From positions 1 to 64,000 of the forward strand of contig CANXME010002496.1 in NCBI GenBank assembly GCA_948144175.1: a stretch of DNA of 64,000 nucleotides. Reading direction: 5' to 3'. This document shows positions 3,188 to 64,000 of the stretch, one piece after another. The notes below the pieces were generated by a model. The model was not told the origin of the DNA. It saw only the letters and a list, made by a program, of their open reading frames with translations, and made no database searches. A program made the position numbers and the translations under genes. Within the stretch, counting starts at the first letter, position 1. Every line of letters starts with the position of its first letter. The stretch comes from Closterium sp. NIES-65 (lineage: Eukaryota; Streptophyta; Zygnematophyceae; Desmidiales; Closteriaceae).

Positions 3188-3453
3188 GTTTGAGCTCACG
3201 AAATGAGCTCAAACAAAAATTGGCCGCGACCTAAATCTGGTCGCGGCCAATTTTGACGCGAACACTTTTGGTGTTCGCGTCGAATCCCAGCCGAACACGA
3301 ACATGTTCGTGTTCGGCTTGGAGAGGCGAAATCCAAAGCCGAACGTCGAACATGTTCGGCCGAACACCGAACATGTTCGGCCCGAACAATTTAGCCAAAA
3401 AAAAAAAAGCCTGTTTCGGTTTCGCCTCGAACATGTTCGAGGCGAACCGAACA
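3188..3453. repeat. Cluster of seven hairpins in the hAT subterminal region
   Basis: Seven near-consecutive inverted repeats lie just inside the hAT right end. Arms of 11 bp occur at 3188-3198 and 3204-3214. Arms of 16 bp occur at 3216-3231 and 3239-3254. Arms of 11 bp occur at 3255-3265 and 3271-3281. A perfect 30-bp palindrome spans 3289-3318. Arms GCCGAAC and GTTCGGC lie at 3338-3344 and 3354-3360. Arms GGCCGAAC and GTTCGGCC lie at 3358-3365 and 3375-3382. A perfect 26-bp palindrome spans 3421-3446 and extends outward with a one-base bulge. The core GAACATGTTC occurs four times. hAT transposases are known to bind subterminal repeats, so a binding-site role is plausible but inferred. Confidence 0.85.
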
Positions 3454-4249
3454 AGCGTTCGGGATCTTGCTCATCCCTAGACGCAGGTAGGGCCAGGCCC
3501 CGGAGGAAGGGGAGGGAGAGACCGAGGGAGACCAAAGACAAGGACACGGGAGGCCATGCCTCGGAGACGAGGCAAGGAGGGGTGACCAAGGCGGTGGTTG
3601 CCAAAGGAGAGTCTGGTGGGACAGCAGACGACATGAGCAGGGGCAGACTCAGGACCAGACCTGGACGCCGCAGCAAACCTCGACTCGACGCAGCTATCTG
3701 GCCAGACTCAGGACCAGGAGGAGACTCAGTAGTAAGGGTGTACAGGCTCGACCCTGGCCGACGGGTGAACGTGGCCAAGTGTCAGCCTGTCCAAGCACAC
3801 ATGCAGTGGGTCACTCGCTGACTCGCAGGAGTGAACTGGTCAACCCCTCGATCCTGTAGGTCCGCTCCACTCACCAAGTTCGTAGAGAACGAGGGGAGGT
3901 ATAGACCACACAGGGTGCCAGAGGGGGCTGCAGGGCACGGAAGGACAGTGGAGAAGCTAGCAAGGACAGGACCCCCAGAGGGGTCTGCCAAGGAGACCAC
4001 GTGTGGCCCACTGTGAGCGAACAGTGGCGTCAGCATCAGCAGCAGGGGCAGGGGAGGCACCAAAAGTGAGGTCAAACAGGGAGAGGCCGTCTGCCCTATC
4101 GCACTGCAGGAAAAGCTGCAGATCATCTACCCAGACCTCAAAGTCCACTGCCCGACCCTCAGCGTCAAAGGTGAGAATGCTAGGGGAAGCCATAACAGCA
4201 GTAGGTGGCAGAGACTGTGCTCTTACTAGGTAGGTGGAGCGATCGGGCT

Positions 4250-15300: not shown

Positions 15301-15370
15301 TAGTAGCAGTAGCAGTAGCAGTAGCAGTAGCAGTAGCAGTAGCAGTGCTGTGCACAGGTAAGTAGGGCAC
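9399..15370 (-). pseudogene. Copia B gag-pol polyprotein region
   Basis: Reading from 15370 leftward on the minus strand. The gag begins MASPTVLSFDSEGHPIKFDT at about 15279. A very glycine-rich, Ser/Arg-containing stretch follows at about 14540-14270. A Cys/His block (about 14210-14110) sits in the nucleocapsid position. A GAG-pre-integrase block HRLGHPSVQRLRG lies at about 13350. The integrase follows with LHMDVWGPARV, VDDYSRYTTVF, LHSDRGGEF and NGVAERRIG (about 13160-12830). A long Ala/Glu/Pro/Gly-rich linker spans about 12350-11030. The RVT_2 reverse transcriptase follows (MWIFRVKRPPG, LDFSTAFLQG, MYVDDLVFA), and the copia RNase H is at about 9740-9450 (VDNKATIALC). Order integrase before RT is diagnostic of Ty1/copia. 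About one break. Confidence 0.9.
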
Positions 15371-41024: not shown

Positions 41025-42671
41025 TTACGGGACAGTAATACTAACATTGCTCTCATCATGGCGGGCATTGCTAGCCCTAGAAGGACTCAAAGCCTTCACC
41101 TTATCCCCATACTCCCTAGGCACCAGAAACACCAGGCAGTACGCCACACTAACAACACAAGCACCAATTATACTACCAACCCAATAAATCCAATGGTTCT
41201 CCCACACATTCGACCAGACAGCAGCGCCGAAGGAACGGGCTGGGTTCATGGAGGCTCCCGTTAGAGGAACACCCACTATGTGATCCACAAGCACGGCAAA
41301 ACCAATCATCATCGGAGCGAGGTGGGACGGACCCTTGGGGTCGACAGCAGTAGCAAAGACTGCGTAGACTAGAATGGCTGTGAGAATGATTTCAGTGAGG
41401 ACGCCTTGGCCTACAGAGACCCCGGCACCGAGCACGTGTGCACCAAGAGCGTCCTGCAGAGGAGACACACGGATGAGAGACAGAAAAATTGGTGTTAAGT
41501 TGCACAAAATCTGAAGAGAAGGTTGGAAAGGAAATGGGGTGAAAGGGGAGGAGGGAAGGCGGGGAAGGGAGACAAGGGGATGGGGGGGTGGGGGGGTTAA
41601 GGGTGGGCAGGGGAAGGGAAGAGTTGTGCTGGGGTGTAGAGAGGGGGGAAAACCCAGTGAAGGGAATGACTGGGGTGGTCAGAAAGGGACTTACATGCGT
41701 ACTGGCAGGAGTTATTGCCTTAACAAGACCAGCACCGAACACAGCGCCTATCAGCTGCGCTGCCACGTAGGCTGCTGCTGTGATGACGTCAACGAGGCCC
41801 ACTGCTAGCATGCCAAGTGTGACAGCTGGATTGATGTGTCCCCCTGAAATCCCTGATGCAGCCCCCACAGCAACCACGAGAGCAAGACCGTGTGCGATGC
41901 CAATGGAGAGTATGCGGGTCACATCCAGTCCCTGAACGAATTCACCTGCAATTCAACAGAGAAAGAGAGAAACAGGAAAAAGAATATTGGCCAACCATCT
42001 CAAGTTTCAGAAGTCTCAAAACGCAATGCGTATGGAGACTATGCGGGTCACATCCAGAACCTGAACGAACTCACCTGAAGATCAACAGGAGAAAATGAGA
42101 TGGGAGAGAAAACTAAGAACATCTGCCAGGTTCATCATGAAGCAAGCACCCAAAACTTTTCCAATTTTGTAAGGCCCAACTTCACACAGATTCTTGAACC
42201 AGACCAGATTGAAGTAAATCAACCATGGAAAGGGGAGAACACCAGCTTGAATTGAACTCACTTGAGACAGCCACTGACCCCACGCCAACGAAGATGGAGA
42301 ACATGGTTCCAACCAGCTCCGCCGTTGCGGCACAGGCAAGGTGAACCAGGTTCAGCATGTGGGCTATATGGACGGAACTCGCACAAGAGCTGCTTTTTAC
42401 TCACTTGAGACGGCCACTGACCCCACGCCAACGAAGATGAAGAACATGGTTCCAACCAGCTCCGCCGTTGCGGCACAGGCAAGGTGAACCAGGTTCGGCA
42501 TGTGGGCTATATGGACGGAACTCAGACAAGAGCTGTTTTTTACTCACTTGAGACGGCCACTGACCCCACGCCAACGAAGACGAAGAACATGGTTCCGATC
42601 AGCTCTGCCATGGCCGCACAGGCAAGGTGAACCAGGTTCGGCGGCTGAAGCCACTGCTTGAACTGAGGCAT
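41025..42671 (-). CDS. Aquaporin of tonoplast (TIP) or hybrid (HIP) type, 267 aa
   Basis: Exons 42671-42548, 41945-41695 and 41453-41025 join in phase to 267 aa, the normal size for plant intrinsic proteins. Both signature loops are present: SGGHINPAVT (Asn80) and GASMNPARSFG (Asn195). The first helix is AMAELIGTMFFVFVGVGSVA, and later helices are ILTAILVYAVFATA and WIYWVGSIIGACVVSVAYCL. The family conducts water and small solutes across the vacuolar membrane. Selectivity-filter residues read by eye are His60, His183, Ala192 and Arg198. A His in helix 5 is PIP-like while the rest is TIP-like, a combination described for the hybrid intrinsic proteins of mosses and lycophytes. Intron 1 contains two further first-exon copies and one partial second-exon copy. 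Confidence 0.9.
42030..42085 (-). repeat. Partial copy of aquaporin exon 2 start
   Basis: The acceptor (TTGATCTTCAG) and the following bases repeat the start of exon 2 (41945) with several changes. They would encode SEFVQVLDVTRIVSI before similarity stops. No matching donor follows, so it is probably an inert echo. Confidence 0.7.
42262..42501 (-). repeat. Two alternative first-exon copies of the aquaporin gene
   Basis: Copy b (42501-42405) and copy c (42358-42262) are each 97 bp. Each begins with its own ATG and ends in the same phase-1 donor (A then GTGAGT) as the main first exon at 42671-42548. They would start MPNLVHLACAATAELVGTMF and MLNLVHLACAATAELVGTMF instead of MPQFKQWLQPPNLVHL. Both keep the first transmembrane helix (copy c has FS for FF). 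Confidence 0.85.
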
Positions 42672-43918: not shown

Positions 43919-46900
43919 TCATTGAGGCGGAGGCTGGCTCTCCAAACGTTCTGGCTTCCTTTTTAGAGTCGGCTTCGCTTGCGGACGCAGCGGACCTCCC
44001 TGTCTCCTTGCACCACCAGCTCTCCTTTGCACTGGCCGAGCCTGCCCCGCACCCGAACCTGTCTGCCGAACCACAGGCCCAGATTGCCTCCACCACGTGG
44101 TCCACCCGAGCCTCTCCGTGGCCCCGAACCTCGCCTCTAATTCACCCGCACCATCACTATCACTCTCTCTCTCCCTTCCACCCTCCTCCCACTCATCCTC
44201 CTCTTCATCTAAACACCCCGCCACCAACACTGTATGCAGACTCGCCGATTCTGACTGCCCCGGAAAATCCGTGGTGAAATGCAATCCACGGCTCTCTCTC
44301 CTCCTCAGTGCGCTACGTACGACCAGAGACGCGACATTGATCAGATTCTCCATCTCGCACGTCTCCATTGAGACGGCGCCACGTGGCAGCAGCACATTGG
44401 TCTCCAGGTCAGCTCGCCAGGAGGACGCCAGCATGTCGATTTCCCTCTGGGCTATTCGGAGACGGTCGGTGGATCGGACAATGCCGACGTAGCGCCACAT
44501 AATAGCCTGGGGATACAATGGTGGGTGGAAAATGGAGTGGTAAGGGAGATGAAGTCAAAGAAAACTAAGGGAAAGTTTGAGGAGGAAAAATAACTTCCAT
44601 CCGTACACTAAGTCGATGAACGTGCCCCTCAGTCCATTAAAAACAGATGCCTACCTATAGTAATGACGAATGCTCTTCCAAAAAGGCTCACCTTAAGTTG
44701 CTCCCTGTACTTGGCAGTCACTCCAGCAGCAGCAACCGCTCCTGAATCCCCCTTGCTCAACCCCACCACCTTCACCTCCTCCCCCTCCCCTTCCACCTCG
44801 CCCTCCCACTCCTCCCCCCCCCACATCGTTCCATCCATATCCCTCCCATCAGGCAACCCCGCAAGCACATGATTCAGCGGCGCAGCAGCCACCGCATGTT
44901 CAATTGCCGGCTCGACTGCTCTCTGCGCAAACACCAGCGCTTCCAGCAGCGAATTCGATGCCAGACGATTCGCCCCATGGAGACCCGTGCATGCCACCTC
45001 CCCCGCCGCCCACAACCCCCGGATCGAAGTCTCCCCAAACAACCCCGTTTGGACCCCCCCGCACATGTAATGCGCGGCGGGGACAACTGGGATCGGGTCC
45101 TTGGTAATATCCACCCCCCACCGCTTGCATTCTGCTGCGATGTTCGGGAAGTGCCGGAGGATCTCGTCCGTCGGTTTGTGGCTGATGTCGAGATAGACGA
45201 ACAGATCGCCGCGCCGCTTCAGCTGGTCGTCAATGGACCGGGCGACCACGTCGCGAGGGGCGAGCTCTGCCCGCGGGTCATAGTGAAGCATGAAGCGCTC
45301 TCCCGCTTGGTTGTACAGCAGCCCGCCTGCCCCTCGAACAGCTTCGGAAATGAGGAAGGAGTTGGGGCGCGGCCCTGGGGGTTGGATGGGCAGGCCTGCG
45401 TCCGCAAGGGCTGTTGGATGGAACTGGATGAACCTGAAGGAGGGGGGATGGAGGAGAGCGGAAAGAGGAGAGAGAGGAGTGAGTTGAGCCCGTGGGCGAC
45501 CACGTCCTGGGGAGTGAGCTCTGCCTGCGGGTCGTAGTGCAGCATGAAGCACTCGCCGGCTTGGTTGTACAGCAGCCCGCCTGCTCCCCTCGCGGCCTCG
45601 GAAATGAGGAAGGAGTTGGGGCGCGGGCCGGGCGGGTGGATGGGCAGACCCGCGTCTGCCAAGGCTGTTGGGTGAAACTGGATGAACCTGAAGGGGGAAG
45701 GGTGGGGGTGGGGTGAAAACAAGGGGAGGGGGATGAGGGTGTTGCGAAGGGCATGGAGTGGGGGAGGGGCATGACAGCACTGAGTGGGGGGAGCGGGGAG
45801 GAAAGGCAGGAAAATTGGGGGGAGAGGGGGATGGGGAAGACCCAGAGGAAGAGGAAGTGGACTCACTCCATGTTTGAGATGACAGCGCCTGCACGCAAAG
45901 CCAGAGCTACACCGTCCCCAGTTGCCACCTGCACACATACATACACACACACATACACACATATGCATAGGCGGTGAGACACTGGGAGACTGAGAAACTG
46001 AAGCATCTTGAGAACAGTAACATGTGCAGGCGAGACATGAACCGGTTCCAAAAATGGAGGTGCCAAAAAAACAATCTTCGTACCGTGGGGTTGGTGGTGT
46101 TGGGGTACACGTGGCCTGCTCCCCCTGTAGCGAGCAGTGTGGATCCCGCTATAAAGCGGATGATCTGCCCCGTCTCCGTGTCCAGCGCCTCCACGCCGTA
46201 GCACGTGCTCTGCCCGCCGTCCTCCTGTAGATACCAAGGAGGAAGGGAGTGGGGAAAGAGTGGGAATGTTGATGCTCTGCTTCCTTGATCTGCCCCGTCT
46301 CCGTGTCCCGAGCCTCCACGCCGTAGCACGTGCTCTGCCCGCCGTCCTGCTGTAGATACCAAGGAGGAAGGGAGTGGGGTAAGAGTGGGAATGTTGATGC
46401 TCTGCTTCCTTGATCTGCCCCGTCTCCGTGTCCAGCGCCTCCACGCCGTAGCACCTGCTCTGCCTGCCGTCCTCCTGCAGGGGTGGTGAAAGGGGGAGGG
46501 TAGGGAAGAGGGAAGCGTGGGGAAAGAGTGGGGTTACTGATGCTCGAGCTTCTTCAAGCATAATCTGCCCCGTCTCTCTGTCCAATGCCTCCACGCCATA
46601 GCACGTGCTCTGCCCGCCGTCCTCCTGCAGTGGTGATAAAGGGAGGGGGGGGGGGGGGGGGGGGGGGGGGTGTGGTGGGAGCGTGGGGAAATAGCGGAGA
46701 GATTGATACTCAGTCGATCTGCCCTGTCTATTCGTCCAGTGCCGTGCCTCCACGTCATAACACGTGCTCTTCTACAAGGGTTGAAAAAAGGGGTGAGCGA
46801 GACCGACAAAGGGCCCCATGCAACAAATTGAGACACAAATGGGCTGTGGGGAATGAGGAGAAGTTTGGCTCAGTGGAATGATGTCAAGCCGTATGCCCGC

Positions 46901-50380: not shown

Positions 50381-53300
50381 TTACCCTCGTCCTCCCTTAC
50401 CCTTCCCCTTGCCTTTTGCCCCACCCTTCATCCTCTTCTTCCCCCCCTCACCACCACCATCCAAATTCCCATCCCCACCACCACCCCTCTTCTTTCCTCC
50501 TCCCTGTGCCTTGATACTCAGCACACCGCTTCCTGGAAGCTTCCCCCCTCCTGCAGCAATCGCAGCCTCAAAGTCTTGATCTCGGCCGTCGATCGCAAAC
50601 TCCTGCATCTGTCCAGGTGTCAGTGACGTCAGCAGGGTGGCTGTGCCAGGCTCTGCCGCCCCCTCCAGCCGGGATTTGATCACCTTCTGTTACAGGGGCA
50701 ACAGTCATAGAAAAACAATATCATGTTTACATAGTGCAATAACCACAGCCCTCGGCACTGCAGCTAAAGAGTTAAAATTGCTTCGACATGGATATAGTGA
50801 GGTGGCAAATGAAAGAAACAAGTCTATCTCTCGACTGACTCACCTTGGCCTGATCTGCTGCCTCTGCAAGATCCTCATCCACTGACTGGGGGTGGGGGCG
50901 CAGGTCCACCTGGTGGGGATAAGACAGGCCCGGGAAGAGGGGAGAGGAGAGGAAGGGGAGAGGAAGGGGAAGAGGGGAGGTGGGGGACGGAGGACAGGGG
51001 CAATGGAGGGGAAGGCTGACTCGCTGCCTCTGCCAGGTCTTCATCCACTGACTGGGGGTGCGGGCGCAGGTCCACCTGGTGGGGAGGAGAGAACGGAGAG
51101 GCAGTGGAGAGGCAGAGGAGGGAAGGGGAGGGGGCAGAGGACAGGAGCTCAGCAGAGCAAAAGGCTGACTTGCTGCCTCTGCCAGGACCTCATCCACTGA
51201 CTGGAGGTGGGGATGCAGGTCCACCTGGTGGGGAGGGGAGAGGCGGGGGAGAGGCAGGTTGAGTCGGGGGAGAGGCAGGTTGAGTCGGGGGAGAGGCAGG
51301 TTGAGTCGGGGGAGAGGCAGGTTGAGTCGGGGGAGAGGCAGGTTGAGTCGGGGGAGAGGCAGGTTGAGTCGGGGGAGAGGCAGGTTGAGTCGGGGGAGAG
51401 GCAGGTTGAGTCGGGGGAGAGGCAGGTTGAGTCGGGGGAGAGGCAGGGTAGAGGACGGCGAACAAGATAGGTGGGGGACGAAGGAAAATGGAGGGGAAGG
51501 CTGACATACAGCAGGGGAGTAGAAGTAGAGCAGCAGAGAGATACAGCACGTGTTTTGAGTCGACTCAAAACACGAGGGATACAGCACTGACGTACCTCCT
51601 TGATCCTGGGCAGAGCAGCCTCTATGGTGCGCGCAGCAGCAGCGGCAGCAGCATCAGCCAGAGCAGTCAAAGATCTCATAAAGCAGAGACACAGGAACGG
51701 TGGAGGAGGGCAGCACATCCATACCTCCTTGATCCTGGGCAGAGCAGCCTCTATGGTGCGCGCAGCAGCAGCGTACAGAACACTGTGAATCTTCCGAATC
51801 GCCTTGTTGAACAGGGCAAGAACTTGCGTCCCGGGCAGCCGAAGGTTCGCCTGTTTGAGATTTGGCCAGAGGAATGAGGAAGTGAGCGAGTGGGAAGAAT
51901 AAAAGCTCGCCCGTTTATGACAATGCAGATGAAAGGTGGTCATTACCAAAAAAAAAAACAAAAAAAGCCACACAAATCGCTACAGGCGTAACAGAATGAC
52001 ATTCGTGGGTGTGCTACAGCCAGCTTGCTACAGCCAATATACGCTACAGCCGTACCTCAATGGTGGAGAGCTCGTGATGCTGTAGACCGAAGGAGAGCAG
52101 AATGGCAGCTTGGGCATAGGAGAGCGATGCAGGGATGAGACCCAGGAAGTATAGGCGGGCAAGTGGGGGAATGAGGTCCATGATCTAATTGGGCGAGGAG
52201 AAGGGGGGGAGAGGAGAAGGGGGGGAGAGGAGAAGGGGGGGAGAGGAGAAGGGGGGTAGAGGAGAAGGGGGGGAGAGGAGGGGAAAAGCGGGAGAGTGAA
52301 GAAGGGATGAGAATGAGGAAGTAGAAGCGGGCTAGAAAGGGAATAAGTTCCATGATCTGATTTGGGGAAAGCAACCAGGGGGTGGTGACATGGAAGGTTG
52401 GGAGGAGTGGGTACGGGGGAAGGAAACTTGCGTTGCTTTGAGTGAAGTGCAAGTGAAAATTGCACGAGAGCGACTTGTAATGTCAGGGGTGCTCCTAGTA
52501 AAGCATCATTACCAGGTGATAATCAACCAGGTTGTTGTTGGCGTCCGACGCGAGTCGCTTCATATCGTATGGCGACAGCAGCGCATCTTCAACCATCTAG
52601 GGTGTAACCAGCAGGGCATCCTTACCAGGGCGTGGGCTCTGGAATGTTACAACCTACCAGGTGATAATCGACCAGGTTGTTGGCGTACGATTCCAATCGC
52701 TTCATATCATACGGAGACAGCAGTGCCGCCTTCCCCTCCATCAGCCCTGCTGGGACGACTGCTTCCCGTGCCTCTGCCTCTGCAAACTCAATCTGCGGAT
52801 CCAGAATGCTGGTGAATGGAGGGAAGGAGGAATGGGGGGAGAGAAGCGAGAAATAGCAAGAAGTGTATTGAGTTTTAAGATGGCTCGAAACATGTCTTCC
52901 CTTCCCTTTCCCTGCATCAGCCCTGCCAGCACAGCACAGCTCCCTCCCGTGCCTCTGCCAAGAGCTGGTTTTTGAGAATTCTCAAAAACTGCCTCTGCCT
53001 CTGCAACCTCAAACTGTGGGTCCAGAATGCTGGTGAATGGGGGTCGGTGGTGGGGGAGCAGAGGGGAAGGGAGGGGTAGGAGGCGAGAACACCCAGTTCT
53101 GAGATCCAAGCTTGCCTTCCCTTCCCTTTCCCTCCATCAGCCCTGCCAGCACAGCTCCCTCCCGTGCCTCTGCCTCTGCAACCTCAATCTGTGGGTCCAG
53201 AATGCTGGTGAATGGGTGAGGGGAGGGGAGGGGAAGAGGGGGGGGGAAAGCGAGGGAGGGGTGGATGGGACATGGCAGGCAGAAAGCAAGCACGCTGCAA

Positions 53301-56300
53301 TATGCGGGTCACACAGGGAGATAGAAAGAGAGCTGTGAGAGGGACAGAAGGGTAGAGAGTGTTGGGGCGTGCACACTGCACCTGAGGCAGAGGGCGGGCG
53401 GCAGGGGCCTGAAGGAAAAGAGGCAATTTTCCTCTCCTCATTCAGGCAAGAGAGAGAGAGGCATATACGATGGGCTGGGGAGAGAGAAAAAAAGAGAGTG
53501 CAGCGTACCTGAGGCAGAGGGCGGGCGGCAGGGGCCTGAAGGAGAAACCGAGGAGAGACAGGAAGCGACGGTGGAAGTCTGGTGGGTGGAGGGTGGGAGA
53601 CAAGGAAGAGGAGGTGAATTGGAAAGAGGACATCAGACTCAGTCATTGGCTCCCTCACCCTAAACACACACACTCACTCACGCACTCACTCACTCACTCA
53701 CTCGCTTGCTCACTCATTCACTCGCTCACTCACTCACTCACCCCCAGAAGTCCCCCAACCAACCTTGAGAGAAGGAGCCAAGCCACGAGTCCTTGTTCCG
53801 GGGAGGCTTGAGCTGAGCATGATGCACGCGTGCTTGCCCCCACAATCCACCAAACCTCATCTCAACAACAGCACACCAACCTTGAGAGAAGGAGCCAAGC
53901 CACGAGTCCTTGGAGTCTGCTGGGCCCAAGTCGTCACTCCGAAGGGGCTTGAGCATGATGCACGCACGTGTGCTCGCCCCCACAACCCACCAAACCTCAA
54001 TCCCAGAGCCCACCAACCTTGAGAGAAGGATGCAAGCCACGAGTCCTTGGCGTCAGCCGCACCCAAGTCCTCGTTCCGGAGGGGCTTGAGCATGATGCAC
54101 GTGTGCTCTCCTGTGATGTCGCTCTGTGGTGAGGGAAGGAAGGCACGAGGGGAGAGGGTGGGAGGGAGGAGAGGAGAAACACAGGACGATAAGAAGCAGT
54201 ATAGCCCGCCCAAGCCATTGTTCCGGAGAGCCTTGAGCATGATGCACGTGTGCTCTCCTGTGATGTCCCTCTGGTGTGAGCAGGGGAAGAAGGGAATAGA
54301 GGAGAAGAGGAGAAGCAGAGCAGAGGACAATCAAGAGGCTCTAGGGCCCCAGCCATCACCCGGAAGGGCTTGAGCATGATGCACGTGTGCTCTCCTGTGA
54401 TGTCAGTTGTTGCCGGCGCCAGAAGTCGAGCTTTGAGTCGACTCAAAACTCGACTCTGACATCACAGGAGAGTTGTTGCCGGCGCCAGAAGTCGAGCTTC
54501 AAGTCGACTCAAAACTCGACTCTGACATCACAGGAGAGTTGTTGCCGGCGCCAGAAGTCGAGCTTTGAGTCGACTCAAAACTCGACTCGACATCACAGGA
54601 GAGTTGTTACCGGCGCCAGAAGTCGAGCTTTGAGTCGATTCAAAACTCGACTCTGACATCACAGGAGAGTTGTTGCTGGCGCCAGAAGTCGAGCTTTGAG
54701 TCGACTCAAAACTCGACTCTGACATCACAGGAGAGTTGTTGCCGGCGCCAGAAGTCGAGCTTTGAGTCGACTCAAAACTCGACTCTGACATCACAGGAGC
54801 GACATCACAGGAGAAGTTGAAGAGCTGCTGCTCCAGCCCAAACGACACGCCCACATAGTACAGCTTCTCCTGCCGCACTGTGCCGTGTGGTGCTGTGCGG
54901 TGCGGCGCGATGCTGTGCGTGCGGTCCTGTAGTACTTGCTCACCGGTGTCTGTCTGACATAGAGCGGCACGAACTGCTGCCTCCGTTGAAGAGCTGCTGC
55001 CCCAGCCCAAACGACACTCCCACGTAGTGCAGCTGCTCCTGCCCATGGCGCTGTGCGACGCTGAGTGGTGAAGTGCAGTGCAGTGCGGTACTGTGCGGCT
55101 TACAGGGGTTTGCCTGACATAGAGCGGAACGAACGCCTGCCGGCGCCAGAAGTTGAAGAGCTGCTGCCCCAGCCCGAATGACACGCCCACGTAGTGCAGC
55201 TGCTCCTGCCGCCTCTCCCCCACCGGCTGCAGCAGTGGCGGCAGTCCCGAGCGTGGAGCCAATTGCTCCTCCAACAATGAACCCTGGCGGAAAGAGGGTG
55301 GAGGGAGTAGGGCGGTGGGGTTGGGGAGTAGGGCGGTGGGGTTTGGGAGTAGGGCGATGGGGCCACTTGAGTCAACTCTCCCCCTCATTAGCTGCAGCAG
55401 CGGTGGCAGGCCCGAGCGCGGCGCCAACTGCTCCTCCAGAAGTGACGCCTGGGGAGGTGAAGGGAGGGGGGAGGTTGGGGGCGAGCGAGTAGCAGGGGGG
55501 TGACAGGGGGAGTAGCAGGGTTAACAACAATTCGGATAAACACCCACACTCAAGCAATCAAAGCAATCCAATCCAAGCAGTGCACCCAACCCGCTATGTT
55601 GGAGTGACTTTTGAGAATTCTCAAAAGTCAATCAAAGCAATCCAATCCAAGCAGTGCACCCAACCCGCTATGTTGGAGTGACTTTTGAGAATTCTCAAAA
55701 GTCAATCAAAGCAATCCAATCCAAGCAGTGCACCCAACCCGCCAAGCTATACGACACGAATCCAAGCACGACACGAATCCAAGCACGGGGAATGTCACAG
55801 AAGCAAACAGAAGGTATTGGCATCACAAAATGCGTCTTCCGCATTGGACGATCATTCGAGAAATCATACTCATAAGAGTCGACAGCGATTACCATACCAA
55901 ACCAACCAATACCCTGTACCGTACCGATCCATTCTCCCGAGCCTCTTGAACAGCCTTGGAGTGTCGCTTCCCGCCTTCCTCTTCCTCCTCGCTCTCCTCC
56001 TCGCTATCCTCTCCCATGCTTGTCAACTGCCCCTCATAGTACCTGCAAACACCAACAAAAGTGAGGAATGAAAGAGAAAAAACTTTGAGGCGCCTCTAAG
56101 AGAGTCATTCCCCTTTCTCTACCTTGTTGCTCTCTCCCCCTCGCTCTCCTCCTCGTTATCCTCCCCCATGCTTGTCAACTGACCCTCATAGTACCTGTGC
56201 GCACCGAGACATGAGAAATATCATCAACACCAGATAGGTAACTTAAGAATGTAGAAAACATGACTCAAAGAGGAGGCTGAGATGGCCTGGAGGCTGGAGG

Positions 56301-59300
56301 CATGACTTGGATGCGGATCAACGGCTCAGATTGCATCATCACCTGGACAGCAGATCAACGGCTCTGGATCCGTATCCCGCGTGCATCAGGTCGGGATGAA
56401 CGGCGATCCGGACCACCCGAGCGCCGGAGAGTGAAGGAAACTCGGAGTCCTGGAACTGCTGGGAGAGCGTCCATGGCAGCAGGTCGCCTGTGGGCTGGTG
56501 TCCCTGGGAGAGGCCTTTCAATGCTGATGCCCTTGATATCTCTCCTTCCAAGCACACCTGGTGTGCAGGGTGGGGGGAAGAGAAAGGACAGTGAAGGAAA
56601 CTCAGAGTCTTGGAACTGCTGGGAGAGCGTCCAGGGCAGCAGGTCGCCTGTGGGCTGATGTCCCTGAGACAGACCCTTGAGTGCTGATGCCCTTGAAATT
56701 TCTCCTTCCAAGCACACCTGTTGTTGAGAGGAGTGGAGAGAGGAAAAGGAAGAGGGTAATGAGCAGAGTGGGGAGGGAGCTCAGAGTCTTGGAACTGCTG
56801 GGAGAGTGTCCAGGGCAGCAGGTCGCCTGTTGGCTGATGGCCCTGTGAGAGACCCTTGAGTGCTGATGCCCTTGATATCTCCCCCTCTAGACACACCTGG
56901 TGTGCAAGGGTGGCGGGTGAGAGGAGAGGGAGGAGTGGAGAGAGGAGAGAGGATTGGAGGGAGGAGAGAGGCGTGGAGAGAGGGGGGAGGAGTGAAGGGG
57001 GGGGGCTGAGAGTGTTGGAAAAGCACTGGCGTTCCTTCCAATCTAACACGAAGGGATTTCATATTGCTTGATGATACACTGGCAAAGCTCACCTGCAGCA
57101 CACACAGCACATCAGGTAGCGAAGTCTGTGACTCGTCCACTGGACCTGCATCGGTGAACGGGTGCACGGGCAGACGGGTGGAAGGGGGAAGGCCAGGGAG
57201 AGAGGAGGACAGAGAAACGTTGGTGAATGCAAGGCCAGGAAGAGAAAGAGCTGGGGAAGAGAGAGAGGGAGGAAGAGACAGGGGAGGGCGACTGGTGCAT
57301 GAAGAGTGTACGCTGTCATGTGTATGTGCAACGTACCGAGGAGGACAAAGAGGTGGTGGGCTGGAGCATCGGACATGAGCTGCAGGTCGTACATTGAAAT
57401 AACAGTACATATGTACTATGCACGCTGTATGTAGTGTGTGTGCACAACGTACCCAGAAGGACAAAGAGGTGGTGGGCTGGAGCATCGGACATGAGCTGCA
57501 GGTCGTACATTGAAATCACAGTACATATGTACTATGCACGCTGTATGTAGTGTGTGTGCACAACGTACCCAGAAGGACAAAGAGGTGGTGGGCTGGAGCA
57601 TCGGACATGAGCTGCAGGTCGTTGGGCGTGTTCTTATAATGAGAGGACACGTATAGTGCCATCATTCTCTGTCACATGACGGGAAGAGTTGAGGGCGAGA
57701 ATAAATGGAGGGAAGGGCGGAGTAGTGAGACTTAAGCTTTTTCCACAATGCGGAAATCATATTGACCGACCATGCTGTGGTGTGGCTTAACAGAAACGAG
57801 ACGATTTTTTAGTCGACTCAAAAACTGGCTTAGCAGAAACGAGACATCTGACGAAAGAGACAACAATACAAGGAAACCGTGTGAGAGGAGGTACCTGGAG
57901 GAAGACTTTTGAGGCGCCTCAAAAGTCGTGTGAGAGGAGGTACCTGGAGGAAGAGCTCTGACGCGGAGTGGAAGGAGAAGAGCGTGTCTCGGTTGACATA
58001 GAACAATTCACACTCGTCTGGGTGCGGCATGCTGGCAGGTGGGGGGGGGGGGGGGGGGGGGTGGGGTGAAGCGGGGAAGGACAGGAAGAGCAGGGGAGCA
58101 GCAGGGAGTGGAAGGAGAAGAGCGTGACGCAGTTGACATAGAACAATTCACACTCGTCTGGGTGCGGCATGCTGGGGGAGAACAGGGTACACGTGAGAGT
58201 GAGACATGGTTGAGTCGGGGGAAGAGGAGTAGAGGAGCAGCAAGGAGTAAACGGAGAAGAACGTTTGTAGGTTGTCATGCGTCTTGATCAAGGAGAAATG
58301 ATAATGGTAATGTTAATGATAATGGTAATGGTAATGGTAATGGTAGTGGTAATTGTAATGGTAATAGTAATGGTAGTGGTAATGATACTGGTAGTTGTAA
58401 TGGTAATGGTACTGGTAGTAGTTTTGGTACGTAGTAGTAATGGTACTGGTAATGGAAATGATAATGGTAGTAGTAATGGTAATTGTAATAGTAATAGCAA
58501 TGGTAATAGTAATGGTAATGGTAATGGTAATGGAAATAGTAGTGGTAATGGTAGTGGTAATGGTAATGGTAGTGGTAATGGTAATGGTAGTGGTAATGGT
58601 AATGGTAGTGGTAATGGAAATGGTAATGATAGTGGTAATGATAATGGTACTGCTAATCGTAATGGTAATGGTAATGGTAATGACAATGGTAATGGTATGG
58701 TAATGGTAATGGTATGGTAATGGTAATGGCAATAGTAATGGTAACGGTAATGGTAATGGACCAAGGAGTAAAAGCAGCTCACACTCGTCTGGATGCGGCA
58801 TGCTGGCAGTGTGGGTGAGTTGGGGGGGGGGGGGAAGAGAGAGGAAATATAGGGATGGTTGCAGTTGACATGGAAGAGCTTGCATACGGCAACGACTATT
58901 TAGGCGCCTCAAAAACAGAGGCAGCAGGGAGAGGAAGGAGAAGGATTGCTGTGCGATTGACATAGAAGAGATTGCATACGTAGGTTAAGGCGTTGGGTAA
59001 GGGTTAGGCATGCTGGGGGAGGGTGTGAGGGAAAAGAGGGTACACGTGAGGCAGAATTTGAAACTCTTGCTTACCGAGCCTGTGCCCCCCTGTACCTAGT
59101 GCTCACCGAGCCTGTGCCCCCCTGTACCTAGTGCTCACCGAGCCTGTGCCCCCCTGTACCTAGTGCTCACCGAGCCTGTGCCCCCCTGTACCTAGTGCTC
59201 ACCGAGCCTGTGCCCCCCTGTACCTAGTGCTCACCGAGCCTGTGCCCCCCTGTACCTAGTGCTCACCGAGCCTGTGCCCCCCTGTACCTAGTGCTCACCG

Positions 59301-62300
59301 CGCCTGCAGCTTGGGCACTTGAGAGGTGGCATCGAGGCACAGCAGGTGGTTCAACCATCGCTCCACAGGGTCCCCCTCCGCATACCGGATCGGCTCCTGC
59401 AGCTCCACCTCCCTCGGCACCCGCAGTGATATTTCCCCCCAGATTATTTCACCTTCCCAGACCTTTTCTTTACCAAATCAAGCCTAAGTTTTACCAAGCC
59501 TGTGACTTACCGTGCCTGTAGCTTCGGCACATGAGAGGTGGCGTCGAGGCACAGCAGGTGGTTCAACCATTTCTCCACGGGATCCCCCTCCGCATACCGA
59601 ATCGGCTCCTGTAGCTCCACCTCCCTCAGCACCCGCACACTCACCCCCCCGCCCCCACCACTGCCACTACCATCAGCGGTTGCACCAGCACCGCCACCAG
59701 CAGCAGCGCCAGCAGCGACGGCCCCTTTGGATTGCTCCCTGAGTTGCTGGATGAGCTTCAGGGAGAGGGACCGCCCCGTGCCCTCATAGCTGTAGGTGGT
59801 GGAGGGAGGTGGGGGAGGTGGGGGAGGTGGGGGAGGGGAGAGGAGATGGCAGCAGCGGTGGCTCCTTTGGATTGCTCTCTGAGCTGCTGGATGAGCTTGA
59901 GGGAGAGGGACCGCCCTGTGCCCTCGTAGCTGTATGGAGAGGTGGGCCACGTGGTTGGGAGAGGGGACCCATGAGGCACGTTGAACACGGTTCCTTGAGC
60001 AACTGGGAGGGAAACAGCGACTCTTGACCATGGGCAGCGGGTTGGCTGGCTGCTCGCCATACCCCTTACACAGCAATCCGCTAAAAGACATACCCGTCAA
60101 CACTGGAGCCCATGAAAACAAGGCACGGCCACTGAAGCGCCTTGACCATGGGCAGGGAGATGGTTGCTGCCTGCTTCCTGTACCCCTTAGGTCATCTTTT
60201 GAGGCGCCTCACAAGGAAGATGGCTGCTGCCTGCTTCCTGTACCCCTTAGGTCATCTTTTGAGGCGCCTCACAAGGAAGATGGCTGCTGCCTGCTTCCTG
60301 TACCCCTTACAAACTAACCCCCTGCATATGTACCCGTTAACAGTAGAGCCCATGGGCCATGAAGACCAGATAGGGCCCCAGCAGCGCCTTGACCATGGGT
60401 AGGGGGATGGCTGCTGCTGCCTCACCGTACCCCATACAGGGTAACCCATTACCAACACATAGCACGTACCCGTTAACAGTCGAGCCCATGAACACGAGGT
60501 ACGGTCCCAGGAGCGCCTTGACCATGGGCAGCGGGATGGCTGCTGCCTCGTCGATCACGAGCAGCTCCGCCTGCTGCACTCGCTCTGCGTGCTGTGGCAT
60601 CACGTACTGCATGGGGGGGAGGGGGGGAGGAAGAGAGGAAAAAGGGCGAACATGGAGACGGGAGAGACGATATCGGGCAGAGGGGGGTGGCAGTGGCAGT
60701 TGCCTTGCCTGCCTCGTCGATCACCAGCAGCTCCGCCTTCTGCACTCGCTCCGCGTGCTGTGGCATCACGTACTGAATGGGGGCTGGGGTGGGGTGGGGT
60801 GGGTGGGCGGGGGTTGAAATGGAGAAGGTGAGTGGACAAGGCAGGCAACCAGGCGCATTGCTCCTTGCACCCCAACCTGCATGGCCCTCAAGCACCTGAA
60901 TGGTCTGCGTGTGCTGGTGAAACACGTTCACTCGCAAGATGGCGCGGTTGAAAGCCGGGTTGGTGCTCTCCACATGTGCTGGGACTGATTCAACCGCCTT
61001 GAACCCATTTGAGCTCCTTCGCTGACCACAAGGACAAGCTCTCACCTGAATGGTCTGGCGGTGCTGGTGGAACACGTTCACTCGCACGATGGCCCGGTTG
61101 AAGGCGGGGTTGGTGCTCTCCACTCCACGTGTGCTACTTTTGAGAATTCTCAAAAGTTTCCACTCCACGTGTGCTGGAACTGACTGACTCAACCACCTCG
61201 CACCCCGTTGAACCCACCTGGATGGTCCCACCTCCAGCCTACAGGCCAGGATCCCCCCTCACACACACCTGAATGGTCTGCCGGTGCTGGTGGAACACGT
61301 TCACTCGCACGATGGCGCGGTTGAAGGCGGGGTTGGTGCTTTCAACGAGCTCGTAGTCTATGTGCTCCTGTTGCACAGCACAGAGGGGGCGTGGGAAGGG
61401 GAAGGGGGTAGTGTGTGTTAAGGAAAGGGACGCAACGGAAGGGGGGGTATAGGGAGCTGGTTGAAGGCGGGGTTGCTGCTCTCCACGAGCTCGTAGTCTA
61501 TGTGCTCCTGGAGCAAGGAGAGTGGGGAGGGAGGATAGGTAGGAAATCGATTGACAACAATCCCCGATGAGAAGGTTGATCAAATCTGCTACTGCAGCCC
61601 TTCGAAACATGAGTCAGGGTGACCCCTGAGAAGGTTGATCAAATCTGCTACTGCAGCCCTTCGAAACATGAGTCAGGGTGACCCCTGAGAAGGTTGATCA
61701 AATCTGCTACTGCAGCCCTTCGAAACATGAGTCAGGGTGACCCCTGAGAAGGTTGATCAAATCTGCTACTGCAGCCCTTCGAAACATGAGTCAGGGTGAC
61801 CCCTGAGAAGGTTGATCAAATCTGCTACTGCAGCCCTTCGAAACATGAGTCAGGGTGACCCCTGAGAAGGTTGATCAAATCTGCTACTGCAGCCCTTCGA
61901 AACATGAGTCAGGGTGACCCCTGAGAAGGTTGATCAAATCTGCGCGAGGTGAGTAGATCTTTCTGTGTATTACCCAACCCGGGAAATCTGAAACTGACCC
62001 ACCTTGTACCCGATGGCATCAAAGCCCTTGCGTGCCTTACCTTGTACCCGATGGCATCACCCAACCAAGGAAAACTACTAGAGGACAATGAAACTGACCG
62101 ACCTTGTACCCGATGGCGTCAAAGCCCTTGAACACAAACTCAAACAGTGTCTTCAGATTCTCCGGGCTCGGCGCCGTCACGAATATGTTGGAGTAGCTGC
62201 AGAGAGGGGGAGGGGGGGAAAGGGGGAGAGAGGGGGGTGGCTTGGTTAGAGGCTGAAGAGGAGTGTGCAATGCAATGCTGCAGTGATTCTCAGAAGACCT

Positions 62301-64000
62301 GCCAGCGATGGCATGGCAGCCGTCGATCGCAAAGTCTTCTCATTCAGAGACGGCACAGAGAAGGGTCACCACCGTCTACAACCCATCTTTCAATCCCACC
62401 CTGGCCCATCCATCCCAACCCCTTCCAACCACACTTACCCCAGCGCCACGGCACCAGCCACAGCGACACCAAGAGAAGCGGATTTCCCCCTTCCTCTGGC
62501 AGCAGCGATCGCAACAGTCGACCTCAGAGTCTTCTACACCAACCCATCCCTCCTTCCACCGCACCCAACCTATCTCAACCCCTTCCAAACCATTCACCCC
62601 AGCGCCATGGCCCCTGCCACACCACAGCCACGCCCAGCGCAGCGGATTTTCCCCTGCCTCTGGCAGCCGTGATCGCAACAGTCGACCTCAGAGTCTTCTC
62701 AGAGACAGCATCCAGGAACGTCACCACTGCCTTGGCCTGGTCCTCCAACCAGCCCATCGACCCCACACCACCCCACCCTACCCCACTCGATGCCTCTATT
62801 CAAAACCAAACAAATCAACCCTTCCAACCCCTCCCAACACCCACTCACCCCAGCGCCACGGCACCAGCCACAGCGACACCAAGAGAAGCGGATTTCCCCC
62901 TTCCTCTGGCAGCAGTGATCGCCACGGTAGATCTCAGAGTCTTCTCAGACACAGCATCAAGGAACGTCACCACTGCCTTGGCCTGGTCCAGCGTGCGACA
63001 CGTGGCCACCAGCGCCCCCACTGGCTGGGTGTCTGCTAGCGACTCCTTGAGCTCCTTCAACTCCCTGTCGGATTCCGACTCCACTGCCTCGCCCTGGGAT
63101 GGAATGGAGTGTATGCGGTTGGGAGGGGTATGGGGAAGGGCATGGGCTAGTGACTCATGGTAGCTGTGTGTCTGCCAGAGACTCCTTAAGCTCCTTCAAC
63201 TCCCTGTCAGACTCGGACTCCACTGCCTCGGCCTGGGGAGGAAGCATGGAATGAGGGAGCGGGGTATGGGGAAAAGGCATAGGCTCGTGACTCACGGCAT
63301 GTCACCACTGCCTTGGCCTGGTCCAGCGTGCGACACGTGGCCACCAGCGCCCCCACGGGCTGTGTGTCGGCTTTTGAGTCGACTCAAAAGTCACCTCAGC
63401 ACGCCACACGTGGCCACCAGCGCCCCCACGGGCTGTGTGTCGGCTTTTGAGTCGACTCAAAAGTCACCTCAGCGCGCCACACGTGGCCACCAGCGCCCCC
63501 ACGGGCTGTGTGTCGGCTAGGGACTCCTTGAGCTCCTTAACTCCCTGTCAGATTCTGACTCCACTGCGTCGCCCTGTGGAAGAAAGGAGAAATGGGGGAG
63601 GGGAGTACGGAAGCAGTGGGTATGGGGGCATGGCCGACACTGGCTGTGTGTCGGCAAGCGACTCCTAGACTTCCTTCAACTCCCTGTCTGACTCTGATTC
63701 CAATGCCTCTCCCTGCGGACGGACGGGGAAATGAGGGCGGGGGGTATGGGGAAAAGGCATGGGCCTTGGCTTGGTCCAGCGCGCCACACGTGGCCACCAG
63801 CGCCCCCATTGGCTGTGGGTCGGCAAGCGACTCCTAGACTTCCTTCCTTCACCTCCCTGTCAGATTCCAATTTCACCGCCTCGCCCTGTTGTTGCGGGTT
63901 GATACGTGAGAAAGAGGGAAGTTGGGCAGGTGGGAAGGGGCGGGAAGAACAGAGGCACGTGGCCACCAGCGAGGTGGCTTTTGAATCGACTCAAAAGTCA
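50381..64000 (-). CDS. NAT10: RNA cytidine acetyltransferase (NAT10/Kre33/TmcA family), C-terminal three quarters; 5' end outside the window
   Basis: Makes N4-acetylcytidine in 18S rRNA and, with an adaptor, in tRNA; nucleolar in eukaryotes. Family blocks run right to left: TLDQAKAVVTFLDAVSEKTL and ARGRGKSASLGVAVAG (Walker A, about 63005-62860); YSNIFVTAPSPENLKTLFEF (about 62195); ESTNPAFNRAIVRVNVFHQH (about 61350); ELLVIDEAAAIPLPMVKALL (Walker B, about 60570); YEGTGRSLSLKLIQQLREQS (about 59785); ECELFYVNRDTLFSFHSASE (about 58010); NDLQLMSDAPAHHLFVLLG (about 57635); CLEGEISRASALKGLSQGH and ARVVRIAVHPDLMHAGYGS (acetyl-CoA site, about 56560-56360); EQLHYVGVSFGLGQQLFNFW (about 55210); TGEHTCIMLKPLRNEDLG (about 54115); SLSYAQAAILLSFGLQHHE (about 52130); ARTIEAALPRIKE (about 51755). 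Exact last exons are 50910-50844 and 50683-50381, ending in a Gly/Lys-rich tail. Almost every exon has partial tandem copies, so the intermediate exon limits are approximate. Confidence 0.9.
50869..51445 (-). repeat. Tripled acetyltransferase exon and a 21-bp minisatellite
   Basis: The exon start VDLRPHPQSVDEDLAEAA (true exon at 50910) recurs at about 51080-51035 and 51220-51175, each behind a CACCAG acceptor. Beyond the third copy, 51241-51445 holds about ten copies of a 21-bp unit (GGGGAGAGGCAGGTTGAGTC plus G), probably intron sequence expanded by slippage or unequal exchange. Confidence 0.85.
51600..51850 (-). repeat. Duplicated acetyltransferase exon segment
   Basis: The block AAARTIEAALPRIKE with the following donor (GAGGTA) occurs at about 51770-51723 and again at 51648-51598. 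The copy on the right is attached to the full exon (LRLPGTQVLALFNKAIRKIH). This is an exon-end echo. Confidence 0.8.
52195..52285. repeat. Short purine-rich minisatellite
   Basis: About five copies of a unit near GAGAGGAGAAGGGGGG inside an acetyltransferase intron. No other content. Confidence 0.8.
53677..53745. repeat. (ACTC)n microsatellite
   Basis: A tetranucleotide run with a few interruptions inside an acetyltransferase intron. Open frames over it are artefacts. Confidence 0.9.
54406..54800. repeat. Six-unit tandem array with internal palindromes
   Basis: Units of 65-67 bp start at 54406, 54472, 54538, 54603, 54669 and 54735, each GTTGTTGCCGGCGCCAGAAG and so on, ending GACATCACAGGAGA. 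Each contains an inverted repeat centred on GAGTCGACTC (first at 54431-54448) inside outer arms AGTCGAG and CTCGACT. Parts of the unit (CAACTCTCCTGTGATGTC on the minus strand) derive from the acetyltransferase TGEHT exon region nearby, so this is an expanded exon echo. Confidence 0.85.
55555..55735. repeat. 75-bp tandem duplication carrying a 26-bp palindrome
   Basis: A block with AATCCAAGCAGTGCACCCAA and CTATGTTGGAG is present about two and a half times. Each junction carries a perfect 26-bp palindrome centred on GAATTC (55605-55630 and 55679-55704). Confidence 0.9.
56338..56900 (-). repeat. Tripled acetyl-CoA-binding exon start
   Basis: CLEGEISRASALKGLSQGHQ with its acceptor occurs three times: the true exon from about 56562, and echoes at about 56720-56590 and 56897-56770. 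Both echoes run to the SQQFQDSE region and then end in C/T-rich intron sequence. Only the leftmost copy continues into SGARVVRIAVHPDL. Confidence 0.85.
57335..57665 (-). repeat. Tripled LQLMSDAPAHHLFVLLG exon end
   Basis: Three copies, at about 57390-57335, 57505-57450 and 57620-57565. Each is followed by a near-identical donor side and about 60 bp of intron containing ACATATGTACTATGCACGC. The period is about 115 bp. Only the rightmost copy continues upstream into the rest of the exon (LYVSS-type sequence). Confidence 0.85.
58295..58760. repeat. (AATGGT)n-type satellite, 465 bp
   Basis: An interrupted run of AATGGT and AGTGGT hexamers inside an acetyltransferase intron. It gives open frames on both strands (Asn-Gly-rich or Val-Met-rich), which are artefacts. 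Confidence 0.95.
59069..59300. repeat. 32-bp minisatellite, about seven copies
   Basis: The unit GTGCTCACCGAGCCTGTGCC then CCCCTGTACCTA is repeated head to tail with almost no change. The unit contains a donor-like CTCAC on the minus strand and ends at the echo of the 59510-59790 exon, so it too derives from an exon end. Confidence 0.9.
60140..60320. repeat. 60-bp tandem repeat with GGCGCC palindromes
   Basis: GATGGCTGCTGCCTGCTTCC then TGTACCCCTTA is present three times. Palindromes of the TTTTGAG-GCGC type lie at 60196-60215 and 60256-60275 between copies. Confidence 0.9.
61568..61945. repeat. 59-bp minisatellite, six full copies plus a partial one
   Basis: Copies start at 61568, 61627, 61686, 61745, 61804, 61863 and 61922 (TGAGAAGGTTGATCAAATCT and so on, ending GGTGACCCC). 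They are practically identical, which points to very recent expansion or an assembly effect. Confidence 0.95.
62435..63840 (-). repeat. Multiple copies of the Walker A region of the acetyltransferase
   Basis: TVAITAARGRGKSASLGVAV is seen best at about 62940-62860, and as copies at about 62705-62630 and 62520-62440. VGALVATC with the preceding SLADTQ recurs at about 63025, 63360, 63430, 63510 and 63810. The copies alternate with short intron-like pieces and TTTTGAG palindromes. Which copies are spliced cannot be decided from sequence. Confidence 0.75.

What the first reader, a model, noticed from the sequence alone, without database searches (positions are those of the whole stretch)
51549..63997. 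A family of short palindromes with exchangeable self-complementary centres at duplication junctions
Seen: about 20 palindromes share the arms TTTTGAG and CTCAAAA but differ in the central tetramer (TCGA, AATT or GCGC). Most lie exactly between direct repeats of 10-75 bp, for example 51549-51574 between two GATACAGCAC copies and 61136-61157 between two CCACTCCACGTGTGCT copies. I noticed none in the first 51 kb. Inference: they could be footprints of a small hairpin element that duplicates its target, fold-back joints of a replication-based duplication process, or a library or assembly artefact, since the centres equal common restriction sites (GTCGAC, GAATTC, GGCGCC).
Basis: partly seen in the sequence, partly recalled or inferred. 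Interest (0 to 1): 0.87.

Follow-up and report, generated by a model that had tools for sequence, protein, structure and literature searches.

The report
Tiny palindromic inserts duplicating their targets
A green alga, probably of the desmid genus Closterium, carries thousands of tiny mirror-image DNA inserts, many of them lying between two copies of the stretch of host DNA they landed in, and they do not fit the defining features of the mobile elements they were tested against.

Summary
The window has 8 exact and 20 near-exact copies of TTTTGAG-NNNN-CTCAAAA beyond 51.5 kb (0.14 expected). It lies in an 874-Mb assembly whose best named protein hit is Closterium; there the pattern occurs 30,327 times (reversed pattern: 4), and a fourth centre, ACGT, exists.

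Adjacent direct repeats (about 10-120 bp) flank 47 of 55 exact copies in 264 kb (arrays included), against 87 of 648 control positions and 0 of 114 chance matches in viral contigs; 22 of 66 isolated copies lack one. Empty sites show insert and duplication arriving together: a NAT10 paralog has an insert between two 42-bp repeats where the window has one copy and none. Artefact is rejected.

The core is the tip of a longer palindrome whose arms differ between copies yet stay complementary: 69 two-sided changes in 16 copies, 11-17 in slid controls.

Best reading: a tiny palindromic element, remade from one arm at each copying, truncated, and captured at staggered breaks whose fill-in duplicates the target. 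Insertion with duplication is shown; copying and capture are inferred. No partner or source was found.

The parts
51549..51574 (.). TCGA-class palindrome, 26 bp perfect; repeats GAGAGATACAGCAC / GAGGGATACAGCAC at 51536-51549 / 51574-51587
52968..52989 (.). AATT-class palindrome, 22 bp; flanking 10-bp repeat weak
54405..54799 (.). Array of six 66-bp units, each with a TCGA-class palindrome (arms GTCGAG/CTCGAC, one arm mismatch)
55555..55742 (.). A-P-A-P-A array, 74-bp unit, two AATT-class palindromes TGAC-core-GTCA
56083..56100 (.). Decayed GCGC-class core (3 mismatches)
57783..57845 (.). TCGA-class insert (core 57806-57823) between diverged 20-bp repeats
57878..57954 (.). GCGC-class insert (palindrome 57904-57927) between identical 28-bp repeats; from the reading frame it straddles an exon-intron boundary of the NAT10 gene (inference)
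58865..58980 (.). Decayed GCGC-class insert (core 58897-58914) between 24-bp diverged repeats
60154..60309 (.). A-P-A-P-A array of a GCGC-class insert; the paralog L257 has A-P-A, so the array differs in length between the gene copies
61119..61175 (.). AATT-class insert (palindrome 61136-61157) between identical 17-bp repeats
60967..60981 (.). Paralogous intron copy without the 61138 insert and with one target copy (empty site)
59970..60011 (.). Empty site: single copy of the 42-bp target that in paralog L257 is duplicated (one mismatch) around a TCGA-class insert with core at L257:3984
63333..63518 (.). A-P-A-P-A array, 73-bp unit, two TCGA-class palindromes
63979..63996 (.). TCGA-class insert with one core mutation; right repeat lies beyond the window end
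42004..42021 (.). Possible decayed ACGT-class copy (3 changes) with a diverged adjacent repeat
51600..64000 (-). Host gene: NAT10/KRE33 RNA cytidine acetyltransferase, with several partial exon copies in its introns
   Evidence: PF05127, PF13718, PF13725

Best explanation
This is a dispersed family of tiny, non-coding, palindromic mobile elements in the nuclear genome of a Closterium-like desmid. The source molecule is probably a perfect palindrome of at least 54-64 bp with a conserved tip (TTTTGAG, then TCGA, AATT, GCGC or ACGT, then CTCAAAA) and, in the ACGT class, conserved CACGTG and AG blocks; the rest of each arm is free to change but matches its partner. That pattern suggests that the palindrome is remade from a single arm each time it is copied (hairpin or fold-back copying, or pairing of two identical half-molecules by their self-complementary 4-nt ends). 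Copies are trimmed from both ends (insert about 20-65 bp at isolated copies with repeats) and joined into staggered breaks with overhangs of about 10-120 nt; filling in the overhangs duplicates the target on both sides. Later unequal exchange turns target-insert-target into tandem arrays. SHOWN: dispersed copies, insertion plus target duplication at the loci with empty sites, ragged ends, covarying arms, array length differing between paralogs. INFERRED: the copying route, the staggered-break capture, the nature of the source, and the organism's name.
For: Copy number 30,327 vs 4 in the reversed control. Adjacent direct repeats (score >=14) at 47 of 55 exact copies (array members counted singly) vs 87 of 648 control positions in the same 264 kb, and at 0 of 114 same-pattern matches in viral contigs. 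Of 66 isolated copies 44 have an adjacent repeat scoring >=13; among these 44, insert 20-65 bp (median 31.5), repeats 16-119 bp (median 43.5). 17 of 68 distinct sites have identical repeats. Empty sites: C9:124164, C6:118971 and window 61138; L257:3984 against window 59970-60011. Covariation: mean complementary extension beyond the core 3.07 vs 1.22 shuffled within class, maximum of 2,000 shuffles 1.77 (n=94); in 16 ACGT copies chosen for having both arms, 69 cells with two-sided changes vs 11-17 in slid controls, covariation score 0.464 vs 0.144 shuffled. CACGTG-N12-TTTTGAGACGTCTC 517+554 vs 0. Nearly full-length copy between identical 19-bp repeats at L203:354. Staggered breaks filled in by polymerase are a known source of tandem duplications under 100 bp (PMC8355091, passages).
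Against: No protein, no autonomous partner and no active source was found, and no genome-wide search for one was made. Arms shared between loci that I take as unlinked stop at about 34 nt, so the source and its size are guesses. 22 of 66 isolated copies lack a convincing adjacent repeat; so do 6 of 20 AATT loci, 5 of 20 ACGT loci and 4 of 9 TCGA loci. These may be old, or insertions without duplication. Two of the five covariation measures do not exceed the shuffles (pairs with a two-sided change 10 vs 10.5; further pair types 31 vs 28.0). Decay of the core and of the repeats is not significantly correlated (Spearman -0.20, p=0.25, n=34). The target boundaries show no convincing motif, so nothing points to an enzyme. 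Tandem duplications without the palindrome are common here: only 23 of 137 two-copy duplications carry the core.
Confidence: 0.6

Rival explanations
1. Retroposition: a short hairpin RNA is copied into nicked targets by a LINE-type reverse transcriptase (target-primed). Variable target duplications and variable truncation come from that machinery.
For: Target duplications of variable length and end truncation are typical of target-primed retroposition (general knowledge). TCGA-class copies with one long arm (up to about 32 nt) and one short arm are common among the loci fetched by a long-arm motif, which resembles 5' truncation, though those copies were picked for a long arm.
Against: Both ends vary (left and right overhangs uncorrelated, r=0.01, 44 copies), with no fixed 3' end. 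Repeats reach 119 bp, longer than usual for LINEs (recalled). I did not search for LINEs. A plain retroposed RNA does not explain why arms covary.
Confidence: 0.2
2. Ordinary miniature inverted-repeat (MITE or foldback) DNA transposon family, mobilised by a transposase and later eroded.
For: Palindromic, non-coding, dispersed, many copies, flanked by target duplications, empty sites.
Against: Duplication length is not fixed (15-101 bp among 46 high-identity sites); inserts are 20-68 bp there; ends are ragged; no transposase partner was seen in the sampled loci.
Confidence: 0.1
3. Break-repair scars: tandem duplications formed by fill-in of staggered breaks, with palindromes made afresh by fold-back at the junction; nothing is mobile.
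For: The sampled sequence is full of small tandem duplications without the palindrome, and staggered breaks do give such duplications in other organisms (PMC8355091, passages).
Against: The same 18-bp core recurs 30,327 times; long arm types recur at separate loci; at clean loci the arm letters do not come from the target.
Confidence: 0.05
4. Artefact of library preparation or assembly (adapters, chimeric reads).
Against: Graded decay of cores and repeats; inserts shared inside a 99.5% identical tract of two NAT10 paralogs, other inserts private to one; arms that differ between centre classes.
Confidence: 0.02

Closest known systems
MITEs / foldback DNA transposons
   Same: Non-coding, inverted-repeat, high copy number, target duplication, empty sites
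   Different: About 20-65 bp instead of about 100-600 bp (recalled); duplication length varies from about 10 to 120 bp; ragged ends; arms differ between copies yet covary
LINE/SINE retroposons (target-primed reverse transcription)
   Same: Variable target duplication, truncated copies
   Different: No fixed 3' end seen, palindromic, covarying arms, far shorter
Palindromic mobile repeats of organelle genomes (double-hairpin elements, GC clusters, Volvox palindromes; recalled, some papers seen only in search listings)
   Same: Short hairpins scattered through non-coding DNA
   Different: Here nuclear (NAT10 gene, 874-Mb assembly), with long target duplications
Bacterial REP palindromes moved by RAYT (PMC3733652 seen in a search listing only; RAYT recalled)
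   Same: 20-40 bp palindromes in high copy number
   Different: Eukaryotic host, long target duplications, self-complementary centre without a loop; tag and transposase not tested
Small tandem duplications by fill-in of staggered breaks (PMC8355091, passages)
   Same: Duplications mostly under 100 bp at the repair joint
   Different: Here a specific palindromic insert lies between the copies
Introner elements (recalled)
   Same: Many-copy insertions in genes of algae, with target duplication
   Different: I saw no sign that these inserts themselves form introns; in NAT10 those examined lie in introns or at a splice boundary (reading frames)

Membership tests
MITE / foldback transposon | Terminal inverted repeats | tested here: met
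   The element is a palindrome
MITE / foldback transposon | Target duplication of fixed, short length | tested here: not met
   15-101 bp, median 37.5, at 46 high-identity sites
MITE / foldback transposon | Precise element ends shared by copies | tested here: not met
   Left and right overhangs range from 0 to 30 and are uncorrelated at 44 copies (30 was the limit of that search)
MITE / foldback transposon | Autonomous relative with matching ends | tested here: inconclusive
   No shared sequence beyond about 34 nt of arm between separate sampled loci, leaving out three pairs that I take as segmental copies; no genome-wide transposase search was made
LINE/SINE | Target duplication of variable length | tested here: met
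LINE/SINE | Fixed 3' end or tail with 5' truncation | tested here: not met
   Both ends vary; I noticed no tail in the printed inserts
LINE/SINE | RNA intermediate | not testable with these tools
   No RNA data
Known structured RNA (Rfam) | Score above a family's gathering threshold | tested here: not met
   8 loci, 20 matches at E<=0.5, none at its gathering score; 19 of 20 are miRNA hairpin models
REP/RAYT | GTAG or CGTC tag and RAYT transposase | not tested
   Neither the tag nor RAYT was searched for
Helitron | Insertion without target duplication | tested here: not met
   Empty sites show duplication

The most novel reading that the evidence does not exclude
A new kind of mobile DNA: a self-regenerating palindrome whose hereditary unit is a single arm of about 25-40 nt. 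At each cycle the arm is copied into a full palindrome through its self-complementary tip, so arm mutations become symmetric and many stem lineages evolve under a fixed tip. The product is captured at long staggered breaks, making target duplications of 10-120 bp without a sequence-specific integrase. The conserved blocks separated by 5-bp free stretches in the ACGT class would be contacts of a protein that binds one face of the DNA.
Probability: 0.3. Interest if true: 0.92.

Novelty: new variant of a known kind. Interest (0 to 1): 0.76.

Why it matters
A pattern with 30,327 exact occurrences, many of them short inserts with readable scars, gives a record of insertion and break repair in a close relative of land plants. 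It also poses a clear puzzle: how can a palindrome of a few dozen bases, with free but matched arms, spread at all? Where the target is duplicated, insertion age and empty sites can be read locus by locus. The arms give a direct test of whether a palindrome is inherited through one half. If capture at breaks is right, the same process may explain part of the small tandem duplications and intron growth in these large, copy-number-variable genomes.

Tried and rejected
Fold-back of target sequence as the source of the arms: rejected because at clean loci the arm letters are absent from the target beyond the right repeat. CCATGG as a second universal end motif: rejected; it belongs mainly to one arm lineage, CCATGGTAACGAGGTGAC (34+32 matches). 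'Sticky-ended 24-bp monomer' and 'replicated hairpin telomere' ideas: considered, not testable here, kept only in the spirit of the novel case. Target-site motif: a C at position +5 of the left repeat (0.61 of 46 sites) is not mirrored as a G at the right end, as a palindromic insert would require, so I treat it as chance. Other palindromes at duplication joints: 0 of 371 non-core spacers had an arm of 7 or more by that script; but a decayed GCGC relative (C6:46577) and some doubtful ones appear among 'non-core' spacers, so heavily decayed members are missed. Correlation of core decay with repeat decay: not significant. Rfam: no family at its gathering score. Literature: eight searches, seen as listings except for two papers, showed no description of this family. 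In PMC10407611 (12 of 14 passages shown) the main text has no occurrence of 'palindrom' or 'inverted repeat'. PMC8355091 was read in passages. Most subscription-journal papers are not held.

Full report
WHERE IT IS. The window is contig C2198:1-64000 of an assembly of 874,075,685 bases in 2,400 contigs. A reading frame at 44629-45894 (minus strand) finds L-aspartate oxidases, mostly of land plants and their algal relatives; the best hit is Closterium sp. NIES-54 at 93% identity over 65% of the query. The assembly size is close to the 876 Mb listed in PMC10407611, which from its repeat figures I take to be strain NIES-65 (passages); genus and strain are inferences. The region 51.6-64 kb encodes, on the minus strand, a NAT10/KRE33 RNA cytidine acetyltransferase (PF05127, PF13718, PF13725) with several partial copies of its own exons in its introns.

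THE OBSERVATION. There are eight exact copies of TTTTGAG-NNNN-CTCAAAA and twenty with up to three arm mismatches and a self-complementary centre, all beyond 51.5 kb; simulations give 0 and 0.14. One more, at 42004, may be a decayed ACGT-class copy. Genome-wide there are 30,327 exact matches, one per 29 kb, against 4 for the reversed pattern. Of the 50 places listed, arrays included, 46 have one of only four centres (TCGA 22, ACGT 12, GCGC 10, AATT 2) and 4 are single-base derivatives. In 264 kb of sample, 90 of 97 near-exact copies have one of the four. AATT totals 2,601. Copies are clustered: in the sampled contigs 10-kb bins hold from 0 to 20. The sampled contigs, other than the window's, were chosen because they carry copies.

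DIRECT REPEATS. In 264 kb of sample (window plus L125-L144), a repeat with score 14 or more, its ends within 20 bp of the core on both sides, is present at 47 of 55 exact copies and 76 of 97 copies including mutated ones, array members counted singly, against 87 of 648 random positions of the same sequences. The same 18-bp pattern in viral contigs has such a repeat in 0 of 114 cases and one of the four centres in 1 of 114; its mean palindromic extension there is 0.39 bp. Among 66 isolated copies (contiguous sample and loci L165-L204, one of which was chosen by an arm motif), 44 have an adjacent repeat scoring 13 or more; in these the repeat is 16-119 bp (median 43.5) and the insert 20-65 bp (median 31.5), with left and right overhangs uncorrelated (no matched control was run for that setting). 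In samples chosen by motif, at least one core with a repeat was seen at 18 of 20 loci, 14 of 20, 17 of 19, 5 of 9, 15 of 20 and 17 of 20. Those calls used thresholds of 9-10 and wider search ranges, where 15% of controls reached 10, so some of these repeats are chance, and a few are pieces of the element itself or of arrays.

INSERTION IS SHOWN BY EMPTY SITES. At C9:124164 the sequence CGGCCCAGCCCCAAGC occurs twice around a 28-bp insert, and a nearby paralogous stretch has it once, with no insert; C6:118971 shows the same at lower identity, and so do the window's own intron copies (61119-61175 against 60967-60981). The first two were picked from 29 BLAST rows for 195 joined queries, most other rows being arrays or segmental copies; the third was picked by eye. 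The NAT10 paralog on C2165 (found, fetched as L257) has a TCGA-class insert at 3984 between two 42-bp copies, one mismatch apart, of a target that the window has once, at 59970-60011. The window has target-insert-target-insert-target at 60154-60309 where the paralog has target-insert-target, so array length changes after insertion. Both gene copies share the 61138 insert inside a tract of 99.5% identity. Together this excludes an assembly artefact at these loci.

ANATOMY. The core is the tip of a longer palindrome. In copies not chosen by arms (with one exception), complementarity runs on beyond the core by 3.05 bp on average against 0.98 when right arms are dealt out among copies of the same class (n=81; 3.07 against 1.22 for all 94, maximum of 2,000 shuffles 1.77). 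Arms differ: many TCGA copies carry GAGGTGAC, extending to TGTGTCGTGTGCCATGGTAACGAGGTGAC; AATT copies carry GAGTGAC, TATATTGGTGCGAC, TTGTTTGAGGTTGA, AAATCAC, GTATGTT and others. ACGT copies carry CACGTG-N12 (517+554 matches, 0 in the control), with dozens of different N12 in the listing and a nearly constant AG at positions 6-7. An alignment of 16 ACGT copies chosen for having both arms gives CACGTG-N5-AG-N5-TTTTGAG-ACGT; ten free pairs show 69 cells with two-sided compensatory changes, against 11-17 when the pairing is slid by 1-3 columns, and a covariation score of 0.464 against 0.144 shuffled; two other measures, the number of pairs with a two-sided change (10 vs 10.5) and of further pair types (31 vs 28.0), do not exceed the shuffles. 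A nearly full-length copy, CACGTGAAAGAAGGAGTG-core-CACTCCTTCTTTCACGT, sits between identical 19-bp repeats at L203:354; L230 is, read by eye, a palindrome extending past CACGTG on both sides, and has no adjacent repeat. Between separate loci no similarity extends beyond about 34 nt of arm, leaving out three pairs of loci that share nearly all of the 80 nt examined and look like segmental copies; so in this sample these are not the ends of a longer repeated element.

HOW IT PROBABLY WORKS. Two facts need explaining. First, arms change between copies yet stay complementary within a copy: this suggests that the palindrome is regenerated from one arm at each round. Hairpin or fold-back copying would do this, and so would pairing of two identical half-molecules by the self-complementary tetramer, which would also explain why the centre is self-complementary rather than a free loop. 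Second, duplications are long and variable and there is no convincing target motif: this fits capture at breaks with staggered ends that are filled in, a route shown elsewhere to give tandem duplications under 100 bp (PMC8355091, passages), better than a transposase with fixed stagger. Tandem duplications without the palindrome are also common here (of 137 two-copy duplications, 23 carry the core), as expected if the break-filling process is general and the palindrome a frequent passenger. Retroposition of a hairpin RNA is the main rival; nothing here tests for RNA.

COMPARISON. It behaves like a miniature transposon in being dispersed and duplicating its target, but it fails the fixed-duplication and precise-end tests for MITEs. 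It shares variable duplications with retroposons but shows no fixed 3' end. It reaches no Rfam gathering score. Palindromic mobile repeats are known from organelles and bacteria, as far as I recall without these long duplications. I therefore call it a new variant of the short palindromic mobile element, with a 0.3 chance that its mode of inheritance is new in kind.

LIMITS. No source, enzyme or RNA has been found. Genome totals for three of the four centres are missing because the genome tool was mostly unavailable. Several samples were chosen by motif. A third of isolated copies lack a convincing repeat, and core and repeat decay are not significantly correlated.

Noticed in passing
window 3285-3446: A second palindrome group sharing CGAACATGTTCG with different self-complementary arms (38-bp and 26-bp palindromes) in a repeat-rich stretch; no test for direct repeats was made.
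   Followed up: no
window 51600-64000 and L257: NAT10 introns hold several partial copies of neighbouring exons, and two paralogs share a 1.7-kb tract at 99.5% identity next to tracts at about 80%, suggesting gene conversion.
   Followed up: partly
window 59068-59306 and 61568-61943; L257 5556-6501: Nearly perfect tandem arrays (32 bp x 7.5; 59 bp x 6.4); the 59-bp array runs to the end of the fetched stretch in the paralog and is longer there.
   Followed up: no
window 10172-15370 (minus): Copia-type polyprotein reading frame of 1,732 aa (RVT_2, rve, gag_pre-integrase).
   Followed up: no
window 33305-34312 (plus): DDE_1 superfamily endonuclease fragment, a likely transposase relic.
   Followed up: no
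L257 3836-3912 (minus): Hairpin scoring E=6.8e-6 with a miRNA model but far below its gathering score; it lies close to the palindromic insert at 3984.
   Followed up: no
L234 and L235 (C229 and C277): Composite of TCGA- and ACGT-class palindromes next to each other, in what look like two segmental copies of one locus.
   Followed up: no
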